Part shown: positions 9,714-46,886 of the stretch, in pieces | How positions within the stretch are numbered: the stretch's first letter is position 1 | Layout: the number at the start of each line of letters is the position of its first letter | Source: Bernardetia sp. | Lineage (GTDB): Bacteria; Bacteroidota; Bacteroidia; Cytophagales; Bernardetiaceae | Assembly (NCBI RefSeq): GCF_020630935.1 | Contig: NZ_JAHDIG010000037.1 | Span: 1 to 46,886 of the forward strand | Direction of reading: 5' to 3' | Length of the DNA: 46,886 nucleotides | Translations under genes and position numbers: made by a program | The notes under the pieces: model-generated | Database searches by the model: none | Told to the model about the DNA's origin: nothing | Seen by the model: only the letters and a program-made list of their open reading frames with translations

Positions 9714-10640
9714 ATGCCAAATTTAAAAGAAGTTCGTGGAAGGATTGTATCTGTAAAATCTACGCAACAGATTACAAAAGCAATGAAAATGGTAGCTGCT
9801 GCAAAGTTGCGCCGAGCTCAAAACCGTATGTTGCAAATGCGTCCTTATGCTCAAAAATTGAGTCAGATTTTGCAAAATGTAACAGCTTCTCTTGTTGGAG
9901 ATGATTTTGAAAGCAAGTATAGCGAAGTACGTCCAGAAGAAAAAATCTTGATTGTTGCAATTACTTCTGATAAAGGACTTTGTGGAGCATTCAATACCTA
10001 TATTCTTCGTGCTGTTCAGAATTTACTTACTCGTACATATAGCCGTCAGAACTCTTTAGGAAACGTAACCATTATGCCTATCGGCAAGCGTGCTTTAGAC
10101 CATTTTAGCCGTCGTAATGCAAAAATGGTAAAAGATTATGCTGGTATTTTCTCTACAAAAGAGCTTTCTTTTGACGATGTGCGTAAGGCAGCAGAATATG
10201 CAATGGAGCATTTTGTAGAAGGAAATTATGATAAAGTAGTTATTGTTTATAATGAATTTAAAAACGTTGCTACTCAGATTGTAAGAACAGAACAGTTTTT
10301 GCCAATCACTCCTCCTACTGAAAACGAAACTTCTACTAAGCCTTCTCTTGATAAGAAAGAAGAGTTTAACAAAAGCGTAGATTACGTATTTGAGCCAGAT
10401 AAGAAAGAAATTTTGGCAGATCTTATTCCACAATCTTTGAAAACACAGTTTTATAGCAAAATTTTGGAATCAAACGCTGCTGAACAAGGCGCACGTATGA
10501 CAGCTATGGACAAAGCAACTGAAAATGCAGGTGAGCTTTTGAAAGAATTGAAACTAAGTTATAACCGTGCTAGACAAGCTAACATTACTAAAGAGATTTT
10601 GGAAATCGTTGGTGGAGCAGAAGCATTAGAGCAAGGTTAG
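9714..10640 (+). CDS. atpG: F0F1 ATP synthase subunit gamma
   Basis: Gamma is the central rotor shaft. The N-terminal helix MPNLKEVRGRIVSVKSTQQITKAMKMVAAAKLRRAQ and the C-terminal helix ending ASRARQANITKEILEIVGG-type sequence (here YNRARQANITKEILEIVGGAEAL) are the paired coiled-coil ends of the family, with ITSDKGLCGAFN in the globular domain. The protein is 308 residues, about 20 longer than E. coli gamma. The extra length maps to a charged loop near residues 200-222, a region where Bacteroidota gammas commonly carry insertions. The gene ends the operon, with a strong terminator 50 nt later. Confidence 0.97.
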   Translation: MPNLKEVRGRIVSVKSTQQITKAMKMVAAAKLRRAQNRMLQMRPYAQKLSQILQNVTASLVGDDFESKYSEVRPEEKILIVAITSDKGLCGAFNTYILRAVQNLLTRTYSRQNSLGNVTIMPIGKRALDHFSRRNAKMVKDYAGIFSTKELSFDDVRKAAEYAMEHFVEGNYDKVVIVYNEFKNVATQIVRTEQFLPITPPTENETSTKPSLDKKEEFNKSVDYVFEPDKKEILADLIPQSLKTQFYSKILESNAAEQGARMTAMDKATENAGELLKELKLSYNRARQANITKEILEIVGGAEALEQG

Positions 10641-10687
10641 TCTTTTTAGTGATTAATTGTAAGCAATTAATTATTAGTTAAATACAG

Positions 10688-10728
10688 AAAAACCGTTTGA
10701 AATTTATAATATTTCAAACGGTTTTTTT
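10688..10728 (+). terminator. Terminator of the ATP synthase operon
   Basis: AACCGTTTGAAAT (10691-10703) pairs perfectly with ATTTCAAACGGTT (10711-10723) around a 7-nt loop, and the stem is extended by A/T pairs and followed by a T-run. This is a classical intrinsic terminator. Confidence 0.9.
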
Positions 10729-10758
10729 ATTTTTAAAATAAAACTTTAGCTTTCAGTT

Positions 10759-11028
10759 ATGAATTATATAGACAAGGTTTTACAAGACATAGCAGAGTTT
10801 GTTATTCTGTTCTCTTTAGGGTATAACTTTAATGAACTTTTATCTGATACTCTTAATGAAGTAAGTATTTTCGACAATTTGTTCTTAGTTATATCTGTTA
10901 TATTTTTTATTCTAATGGTAGGAGTAATTGCTTATATGGGTATTAGGAAAAGAAATAGAAGAAAATTATACTATATTCTCGTCACACTTTTAATAACAGG
11001 CGTTTGTATCTATACTGCTATTAAGTAG
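10759..11028 (+). CDS. N-terminal fragment of the interrupted membrane protein
   Basis: This 89-codon ORF encodes a membrane protein with hydrophobic stretches at about residues 12-24, 42-61 and 71-87. Its stop codon TAG is supplied by the first bases of the inserted element, since the native frame continues past the element. It might still be made as a truncated product. It follows the atpG terminator on the same strand and has no recognised family. Confidence 0.6.
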   Translation: MNYIDKVLQDIAEFVILFSLGYNFNELLSDTLNEVSIFDNLFLVISVIFFILMVGVIAYMGIRKRNRRKLYYILVTLLITGVCIYTAIK

Positions 11029-11172
11029 TTGAGTAGTACAATTTAGTTTATAAAGACTATTGTCAAGATCTGTTTTTTTCTTCGAAAAGACCCTTGACAA
11101 AGTTAAAATTCAACTTTTTATAAAATTGCACTAGCTTTTGAAAATAACAAAATTATACCAGTTAACTACTTA
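11022..11172. mobile_element. MITE-like palindromic element (147 bp) flanked by TA, copy 1
   Basis: The element 11024-11170 begins AGTAGTTGAGTAGTACAATT. The reverse complement of its right end begins AGTAGTTAACTGGTATAATT, so 17 of the first 21 positions agree as terminal inverted repeats. TA is present on both sides (11022-11023 and 11171-11172). Inside, TTGTCAAG (11060-11067) pairs with CTTGACAA (11093-11100) and TTTTC pairs with GAAAA at the centre, so the whole element can fold into a hairpin. It has no ORF. A TA duplication is characteristic of the IS630/Tc1-mariner superfamily, whose transposase would have to act from elsewhere. A second copy begins at 46834. Confidence 0.82.
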
Positions 11173-11213
11173 ATTATTCAAAGATTAAAAAAGTTGATAA
11201 CTCGCCTGTTGTT

Positions 11214-11501
11214 ATGAAGTTTTCTCATGTTAGTAGTGGGTTCAATCTATGCTTAGAGCTAAGACAAGACAGCACATATTTATTCACACAAAATAACTCT
11301 ATAGAGATTTATAGAGGAAGATACTCAAAACAGGACAGTATCATAAAATTAGACAGAACTAAAATAGGTAGTATAATTGAATCTAATGTCCTATTAATCA
11401 GAAAAGGACAAGGAGACAAAGCCATACTTTATCAAGTTGATGAAGATGATAATCAGTATAGAATTATTAAAAAAGCTTTTCCATTTATACTTGTAAAATA
11501 A
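11214..11501 (+). CDS. C-terminal fragment of the interrupted membrane protein
   Basis: This 95-codon ORF encodes a soluble, beta-rich domain with the sequence SSGFNLCLELRQDSTYLF and ends KKAFPFILVK. Its ATG at 11214 is probably an internal Met of the original gene, because the frame stays open back to 11166 inside the element. It has no promoter or ribosome site that I can see, so expression is doubtful. It converges with the rhlE gene, whose stop is 5 nt away. Confidence 0.5.
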   Translation: MKFSHVSSGFNLCLELRQDSTYLFTQNNSIEIYRGRYSKQDSIIKLDRTKIGSIIESNVLLIRKGQGDKAILYQVDEDDNQYRIIKKAFPFILVK

Positions 11502-11505
11502 AATC

Positions 11506-12822
11506 TCATCTTTTCTTCTTAGGTTTTCTGTTTGATGAACTTCTATTTTTTTTCTTGTCTTTATTTTTAGGGTCTTGATAGCGTTTTTTGTGGTGGAACG
11601 CTCCTTTGTAGTTAGGGTCTTCTCGCTGTCTGATAAAGTCTAATGCACGAAGAAGTTTCTGATTTTCCTCAAAAGGCGTTTGTGTAATATCTACGACTGT
11701 CGGAATGCGTTCTTGTGGAATTTTTTTTCCAATTAGTTTTTCAATTTTTCTAAGGTGATGAACATCTAAAACGTTGGCAAACGTAATGGCAATTCCTTCT
11801 TTCTCTGCTCGTCCTGTACGTCCAATTCTGTGTACATAATCGTCGTATTGTTTCGGAACTTCAAAATTAATAACGTGACTTACATCACTCACATCTAATC
11901 CTCTTGCAGCCACATCTGTTGCCACCAAAATACGGATATTCTCTTTTTTAAAATCATCAAAAGCATTGCTTCGTGCATTTTGGTCTTTATTGCTATGGAT
12001 TACACGTACACTCTCATCTACTTTTCTTGTCAGAAATTTATACACATTATTAGCTACTTCTTTTGTACGAGTAAAGACAATCACTTTATGAAAGCTCTCT
12101 TTGTCTTCCAAAAGGTGTTCTAAAAGATTGATTTTGGTTCGGAAATTAGGAACTTCATAATATCTTTGTTCTACTGTTTCGGCAGTAACAGCAACTGGAG
12201 AGATATTTATTTCTTCTGGAAACTCTAAAAAGTCTTCTGTTAGTTTGACGACTTTCTCTGGCATTGTCGCTGAAAAAAGAGCATTTTGGCGTTTTTTACT
12301 AGAAATAATTTCCAACAAACGATTAATTTGTGGCTGAAAACCCATATCCAAAATACGGTCTGCCTCATCCATTATCATCGTCTTAATTTTTCTTAGATTC
12401 AGTTCATTTCTCTGATAAATATCTAAAAGCCTTCCTGGAGTAGCGATAATCAAATCCATCCCTTCCCTTACTTGCTCCAACTGCCTTTTTATGCTTCCAC
12501 TTCCTCCATATAATGCTACGGCACGCAAATCTGTATATTTACTAAGCATTTCGAAGTGTTCGTAAATCTGCATGACAAGCTCACGAGTAGGGGCAAGAAT
12601 TAAGGCACGAGGCTCATTTCCTTGTGCATATTTGAGTTTCATCAAGAGAGGCAACATAAAAGCAGCCGTTTTTCCTGTTCCTGTCTGTGCTACGCCAATA
12701 ACATCATGTCCAGCCAAAAGCAAAGGAATTGCCTTTTCTTGAATCGGACTAGGTTTTTCATACCCTGCTTCTTCAATGGCGTTGAGGAGTTGTCTGTTTA
12801 ATTTAAAATCTTCGAAAGTCAT
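11506..12822 (-). CDS. rhlE: DEAD-box ATP-dependent RNA helicase, RhlE type
   Basis: The 438-residue protein has all helicase motifs in order: the Q motif (FKLNRQLLNAIEEAGYEKPSPIQ), Walker A AQTGTGKT at 45-52, PTRELV, TPGR, DEAD at 152-155, SAT at 184-186, and in the second RecA domain ARGLDV and HRIGRTGR. The C-terminus after about residue 400 is a short basic tail rich in Lys and Arg that binds RNA non-specifically. RhlE proteins remodel RNA during ribosome assembly and mRNA turnover, often in the cold. Bacteroidota carry several paralogues, so the gene symbol is a class label. Confidence 0.93.
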   Translation of the reverse strand: MTFEDFKLNRQLLNAIEEAGYEKPSPIQEKAIPLLLAGHDVIGVAQTGTGKTAAFMLPLLMKLKYAQGNEPRALILAPTRELVMQIYEHFEMLSKYTDLRAVALYGGSGSIKRQLEQVREGMDLIIATPGRLLDIYQRNELNLRKIKTMIMDEADRILDMGFQPQINRLLEIISSKKRQNALFSATMPEKVVKLTEDFLEFPEEINISPVAVTAETVEQRYYEVPNFRTKINLLEHLLEDKESFHKVIVFTRTKEVANNVYKFLTRKVDESVRVIHSNKDQNARSNAFDDFKKENIRILVATDVAARGLDVSDVSHVINFEVPKQYDDYVHRIGRTGRAEKEGIAITFANVLDVHHLRKIEKLIGKKIPQERIPTVVDITQTPFEENQKLLRALDFIRQREDPNYKGAFHHKKRYQDPKNKDKKKNRSSSNRKPKKKR

Positions 12823-46831: not shown

Positions 46832-46886
46832 TAAGTAGTTGAGTAGTACAATTTAGTTTATAAAAACTATTGTCAAGGTCTGTTTT
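46832..46886. mobile_element. MITE-like element, copy 2 (left end only, window edge)
   Basis: The last 53 nt (46834-46886) match the left end of the element at 11024-11076 with two differences (G/A and A/G), and are preceded by TA at 46832-46833, like copy 1. The rest lies outside the window. It lies in the spacer after the crotonase terminator, so it disrupts no visible gene. Confidence 0.85.

What the first reader, a model, noticed from the sequence alone, without database searches (positions are those of the whole stretch)
10759..11501. Gene cut by a 147-bp palindromic MITE; precise excision restores the frame
Seen directly: 11024-11170 is flanked by TA on both sides, its ends are imperfect inverted repeats (17 of 21), and deleting 149 nt (element plus one TA) joins ORFs 10759-11028 and 11214-11501 into one 197-codon frame with no stop. 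The element itself supplies the stop of the first ORF. A TA duplication is the established mark of IS630/Tc1-mariner transposition. The inference is that this is a recent non-autonomous insertion into a membrane protein gene of unknown function.
Basis: partly seen in the sequence, partly recalled or inferred. Interest (0 to 1): 0.75.

Follow-up and report, generated by a model that had tools for sequence, protein, structure and literature searches.

The report
IS630-type MITE splits a gene
A short, non-coding jumping DNA element of a well-known kind, present in more than twenty copies in this bacterium, has landed inside a small membrane-protein gene and cut it in two; related species carry the gene uncut, so this is a clear but ordinary case of gene breakage by a mobile element.

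Summary
Window 11024-11170 is a 147-bp element with imperfect inverted ends (17 of 21) and TA on each side. Its own genome holds at least 21 full-length copies (18 at 96-100% identity, this one included; 3 at 79-80%) plus partial ones; 20 of 21 have TA on both sides. Two same-genus genomes carry the gene uninterrupted behind atpG; G003 shows the empty site with a single TA. The element has stops in all six frames. Its ends match those of an IS630-type insertion sequence at 21-23 of 27 bases (chance best mean 16.6, maximum 19). That IS is seen only as a decayed DDE_3 element in same-genus G001 and as ten copies of a 5' end in the own genome; no intact partner was found. So this is a recent non-autonomous IS630/Tc1-mariner-type MITE insertion. 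'Precise excision' is a reconstruction, not an observed event. By a crude test 2 of 21 copies, this one among them, lie inside an open frame, against 796 of 1230 random nearby TA sites. New member of a known kind.

The parts
11024..11170 (+). MITE, 147 bp, non-coding (stops in all six frames), imperfect terminal inverted repeats
11022..11023 (.). TA, left copy of target-site duplication
   Evidence: 20 of 21 genome copies have TA on both sides
11171..11172 (.). TA, right copy of target-site duplication
11024..11044 (+). left terminal inverted repeat (AGTAGTTGAGTAGTACAATTT)
   Evidence: 17 of 21 to the right end; consensus left end, TA included, 21-22 of 27 to IS630-type ends
11150..11170 (-). 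right terminal inverted repeat
   Evidence: consensus right end, TA included, 22-23 of 27 to IS630-type ends
10759..11028 (+). 5' half of the interrupted gene (hydrophobic stretches, read by eye); its stop TAG lies in the MITE
11173..11501 (+). 3' half of the interrupted gene (the ATG-started frame inside it is 11214-11501)
9714..10640 (+). atpG (ATP synthase gamma), upstream neighbour also in G003, G005 and G006
   Evidence: PF00231 at E 1.1e-99
46832..46886 (+). start of a second copy of the MITE (its TA at 46832-46833), cut by the end of the contig

Best explanation
A non-autonomous IS630/Tc1-mariner-type MITE transposed into a TA dinucleotide (context ATTAAT) of a 197-codon gene behind atpG. 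Transposition duplicated the TA and brought in a TAG as the first whole codon inside the element, so the gene is split and most likely inactive. The MITE has no coding capacity. It is inferred to be moved by the transposase of an IS630-type insertion sequence with matching 27-bp ends, which is (or recently was) multicopy in the same genome. SHOWN: element, TA duplication, copy family, empty site in a relative, uninterrupted homologues, matching ends on IS630-type remnants. INFERRED: cross-mobilisation by that IS; loss of gene function; recency (3 differences from the family consensus in 147 positions, and no other stop in the 197-codon frame). NOT SHOWN: excision; an intact partner IS.
For:: 34 matches in the own genome, 21 full length. 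TA on both sides in 20 of 21; 18 young copies 95.2-100% identical pairwise (mean 98.7%); this copy has 3 differences from their consensus; uninterrupted orthologues in G003 and G006 behind atpG; G003 empty site with one TA. G005 is open across the junction too but has a separate frame break upstream; a profile of the whole protein matches 10 of 291 genomes (own included); outside the genus, weak single-frame matches across the junction in G008, G061 and G223; the end pattern hits 60 times in the own genome, reversed-pattern control 0; ends at 21-23 of 27 to a DDE_3 group in G001; chance best match for the MITE right end in random 3-kb sequence mean 16.6, maximum 19 (300 trials).
Against: One of 21 copies (L018) has TG instead of TA on one side. 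The two ends match each other in only 16-17 of 21. No intact autonomous IS with these ends was found: the G001 element has stops in its transposase and I could not place its 3' end, the G001 3' end compared comes from a deletion derivative (L033), and in the own genome only 5' ends and an N-terminal fragment without a Pfam match at E 0.001 were seen (63% identical over 71 residues to the G001 frame). The only DDE_3 gene found in the own genome (C137) belongs to another IS630 group, 15 of 27 to the MITE right end and 11 of 27 to the left. In the six other genomes of the genus the end pattern scores 15 hits against 5 for the control, so some of those are chance. G272 and G021 match only the second half. 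The gene was not found in G001, G002 and G004.
Confidence: 0.95

Rival explanations
1. The two ORFs are two separate genes and the 147-bp sequence is ordinary intergenic DNA or a regulatory repeat between them.
For: Each ORF has its own possible start codon; the sequence folds better than most shuffles; two weak distant matches cover only the second half (G272, G021).
Against: Single uninterrupted orthologues in G003 and G006 cover both halves; the empty site is seen at DNA level; the same 147 bp occurs at 17 other places at 96-99% and a 146-bp relative at 3 more.
Confidence: 0.01
2. The repeat is a different kind of small element (REP/BIME-like palindrome, CRISPR-like unit, structured RNA) and not an IS630-type MITE.
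For: Palindromic inner hairpin.
Against: Defined ends, TA on both sides at 20 of 21 copies, and ends shared with a DDE_3 group; no Rfam family at gathering threshold in 10600-11600.
Confidence: 0.03
3. The insertion is real, but the split gene still works as two polypeptides, or the element drives the second half.
For: An ATG-started second ORF lies 43 bp after the MITE; one + strand promoter-like match lies inside the element (11082-11109), but the region's total (9) is not far above shuffles (mean 5.6, sd 2.0).
Against: The second half begins with ordinary mid-gene sequence and has no Pfam match at E 1; G005 shows a separate break of the same gene, and the gene was not found in 3 of the 6 other genomes of the genus, which points to a dispensable gene.
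Confidence: 0.05

Closest known systems
RUP (repeat unit of pneumococcus), proposed to be moved by IS630-Spn1
   Same: About 100-150 bp, stops in all six frames, TA at its target, ends similar to an IS630-family IS of the same genome, reported as intergenic repeats (PMC2229807, passages seen)
   Different: Different host phylum (Bacteroidota here) and size (107 bp against 147 bp); the copy studied here is intragenic; sequences were not compared here
IS630/Tc1-mariner family insertion sequences, e.g. ISY100 of Synechocystis
   Same: TA target and TA duplication; imperfect inverted ends (24 bp in ISY100); DDE transposase; 30 bp of each end is enough for transposition (PMC2170065, abstract and passages seen)
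   Different: Those encode their own transposase; the element here does not
Other bacterial MITEs with TA at their ends (Correia/NEMIS, ERIC)
   Same: Size class, inverted ends, TA at termini (table in PMC2229807, passages seen)
   Different: Other hosts; sequence comparison with them was not run

Membership tests
MITE (non-autonomous DNA transposon) | Short, no transposase ORF | tested here: met
   147 bp, stops in all six frames
MITE (non-autonomous DNA transposon) | Terminal inverted repeats | tested here: met
   17 of 21 in this copy, 16 of 21 in the consensus
MITE (non-autonomous DNA transposon) | Many near-identical copies at unrelated sites | tested here: met
   21 full copies with different flanks; 18 of them 95.2-100% alike pairwise
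MITE (non-autonomous DNA transposon) | Occupied site against empty site in a relative | tested here: met
   G003 empty site with a single TA; G006 also uninterrupted
IS630/Tc1-mariner group | TA target-site duplication | tested here: met
   20 of 21 copies TA on both sides
IS630/Tc1-mariner group | Ends shared with an element carrying an IS630-type DDE transposase | tested here: met
   G001 element, decayed, PF13358 at E 2.1e-13 on a 106-aa piece, ends of its group 21-23 of 27 to the MITE ends; related 5' end ten times in the own genome
IS630/Tc1-mariner group | Intact autonomous partner in the same genome | tested here: inconclusive
   Only 5' ends (nine at contig ends) and an N-terminal fragment were seen; interior and 3' end not found in the assembly
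IS630/Tc1-mariner group | Element actually moved by that transposase | not testable with these tools
   Needs a transposition assay

The most novel reading that the evidence does not exclude
The genus carries a still-active IS630-MITE system: several families of short elements with the same ends but different interiors (147 and 146 bp here; with both TAs counted, 150-151 bp in G003 and G004, 135-315 bp in G002, G005 and G006, and 525-671 bp deletion derivatives in G006 and G001), with a current burst in this genome that is now starting to break genes. The copy at 11024 would then be a reversible gene switch if precise excision occurs.
Probability: 0.07. Interest if true: 0.4.

Novelty: new member of a known kind. 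Interest (0 to 1): 0.17.

Why it matters
It documents an IS630-type MITE family in a bacterium of, most likely, the order Cytophagales (nearest named atpG matches) with a clean empty site in a relative, and it accounts for many breaks of this assembly: nine contig ends stop inside copies of the MITE and nine more inside an IS630-type end. It is a useful annotation and a convenient test case for MITE mobilisation, but no surprise to a specialist.

Tried and rejected
A genome-contig scan with the first half found no relative; relatives' whole genomes had to be used. Pfam gives no family above cut-off for the gene, in pieces or in the uninterrupted homologues. No match to the MITE in plasmid or phage records at E 1e-5. 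The MITE as DNA query over 59 genomes (own included) matched 6: own, G005 (E 1.4e-8, a decayed relative) and weakly G001, G010, G033, G058 (E 2e-4 to 8e-4; only G001 looks like a true end); at most 14 candidates per genome were scored, so misses are not firm. The only DDE_3 gene of the own genome (C137) was first taken as the partner because its end begins TAAGTAGCTAGC; over 27 bases it matches only 15, so it was set aside. A search for the 3' end of the better partner in the own genome gave 16 matches at E up to 1, the best (E 3.3e-4) not at the element's end. Searches failed on wrong reading frames of mine and were repeated correctly. Paper searches: MITE + IS630 + Bacteroidetes 0 papers; Cytophagales + miniature inverted-repeat 0 papers; miniature inverted-repeat + Bacteroidetes 13 papers, 12 listed, listing only seen, led by a Porphyromonas gingivalis MITE; listings only. 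Of a 2024 review of prokaryotic MITEs (PMC10969869) I saw passages; the word IS630 does not occur in its held text. An earlier count said 11 further contig ends; the checked number is nine, the window's own end included.

Full report
OBSERVATION. The first ORF ends at a TAG (11026-11028) that is the first whole codon inside a 147-bp element (11024-11170) with TA on each side; its ends agree in 17 of 21 positions. Leaving out the element and one TA gives a single 197-codon frame. [quoted passage not shown]

COPIES. In the window's own genome (4.75 Mb, 153 contigs) the 156-base query has 34 matches: 21 full length, 9 that touch a contig end, and 4 others that are partial (C29, whose contig length I did not see; C85; C110; and a 26-nt end at C20). 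Only 40 of 108 first-look candidates were scored, so this is a lower bound; the uncapped pattern search for the ends showed no further copy of the young family. Eighteen full copies, this one included, are 96-100% identical to it and three 79-80%. Among the 18, pairwise identity is 95.2-100%, mean 98.7%; this copy differs from their consensus at 3 of 147 positions. Twenty of the 21 have TA on both sides; the exception, L018, has TG on one side. The base before the left TA is T in 18 of 21 and the base after the right TA is A in 19 of 21, so TTAA-like targets are preferred. The window's last 55 bases are the start of another copy.

THE GENE AND THE EMPTY SITE. Searched piece by piece in 29 genomes (the own one and 28 relatives), each half matches in 4: the own genome and same-genus G003, G005 and G006. 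In G003 and G006 one open frame (227 and 223 codons) covers both halves, behind atpG as in the window. The rejoined window protein aligns end to end with both, 60% identical to G003. At DNA level G003 reads TGTCATTAATTATTCAAAGATT where the window reads TGCTATTA-element-TAATTATTCAAAGATT: an empty site with one TA. G005 is open across the junction but has its own frame break upstream, and the gene was not found in G001, G002 or G004, so it looks dispensable. A profile of the three proteins matched 10 of 291 genomes, the own one included (at most 11 candidates per genome scored). Outside the genus the matches are weak (best E 1.4e-7): single-frame and across the junction in G008, G061 and G223; one with a stop in G010; and, against the one-gene reading if they were close relatives, second half only in G272 and G021. 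No Pfam family above cut-off names the protein.

PARTNER TRANSPOSASE. DDE_3 (PF13358), the catalytic domain of IS630-type transposases, has one match in the own genome, on C137. The end of that element starts TAAGTAGCTAGC like the MITE but matches only 15 of 27 bases. A better partner came from a pattern for the ends (TAAGTARTT-N9-AATTTTGTT, one mismatch allowed): 60 hits in the own genome against 0 for the reversed pattern; in the six other genomes of the genus 15 against 5. Ten of the 60 are the 5' end of another element: nine stop at contig ends and one internal fragment (C50) carries the start of a frame 63% identical over 71 residues to the transposase frame of a G001 element. The fragment itself has no Pfam match. 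The G001 element is decayed, with stops in its transposase, but a 106-aa piece matches DDE_3 at E 2.1e-13, and its N-terminal frame has only sub-threshold helix-turn-helix matches. Ends of this group (own 5' end, G001 5' end, and the 3' end of a 671-bp G001 derivative) match the MITE ends at 21-23 of 27; for the MITE right end, random 3-kb sequence gives a best match of 16.6 on average and 19 at most in 300 trials. The interior of the own-genome element was not found, as expected for a collapsed repeat. Pairs of such ends with other interiors are seen in G001-G006, the second end matching 14-17 of 18 specified bases; some single hits are probably chance. A decayed relative of this very MITE is in G005 (L031).

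CONTEXT OF COPIES. As a crude test of gene interruption I measured, for each empty site, the open frame reaching at least 150 nt on both sides: 2 of 21 copies (this one and L004 at C35:21952), against 796 of 1230 random TA sites in the same flanks; at 90 nt, 4 of 21 against 941 of 1230. L002 has only 54 nt on its right side, so it could not score at 150. These are open frames, not gene calls. The family therefore seems to sit mostly outside genes, and the copy given here is one of the exceptions.

MECHANISM. TA duplication, inverted ends and absence of coding capacity fit cut-and-paste transposition by an IS630/Tc1-mariner transposase acting in trans. For ISY100, a bacterial member, the transposase alone suffices for excision and integration, the target is TA, and 30 bp of each end are enough (PMC2170065, abstract and passages); [quoted passage not shown]

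COMPARISON. The closest described case I saw is RUP of Streptococcus pneumoniae with IS630-Spn1 (PMC2229807, passages). This is the same kind of element in another phylum. Verdict: new member of a known kind, well supported, of low surprise.

Noticed in passing
window 46832-46886: The contig ends inside a second copy of the same MITE; nine contig ends of this assembly, this one included, stop about 50 nt inside copies.
   Followed up: partly
L213 (C50:33900-36503) and contig ends of C38, C50, C62, C63, C82, C88, C89, C119, C144: A second repeat with end TAAGTAATTATCTACTACAATTTTGTT, probably an IS630-type element, breaks nine more contig ends; its interior was not found in the assembly.
   Followed up: partly
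L041/L042 (G005:C287): The homologue in G005 is split by a separate frame break about 40 codons from its start; an independent loss or a sequencing error.
   Followed up: no
L004 (C35:21952-22107): Another MITE copy lies within an open frame (252 and 366 nt on its two sides), possibly a second broken gene.
   Followed up: partly
L008 (C20:16659-16834): A 26-nt end of one MITE copy abuts a full copy, the two sharing a single TA; perhaps a tandem insertion followed by a deletion.
   Followed up: no
L010 (C11:20160-20311): A copy ends four bases before an ATG that opens a long frame, so the MITE may now form its upstream region.
   Followed up: no
window 11506-12822 against L039, L040, L041: The downstream neighbour differs: a DEAD-box helicase (PF00270) on the - strand here, but a CrcB-like ORF (PF02537, tested on L039) in G003 and its look-alikes in G005 and G006.
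   Followed up: partly
L186 (G006:C24:30866) and L187 (G002:C1:4427254): Short elements with the same ends sit beside what looks by eye like the same flanking sequence in two species, suggesting an old shared insertion.
   Followed up: no
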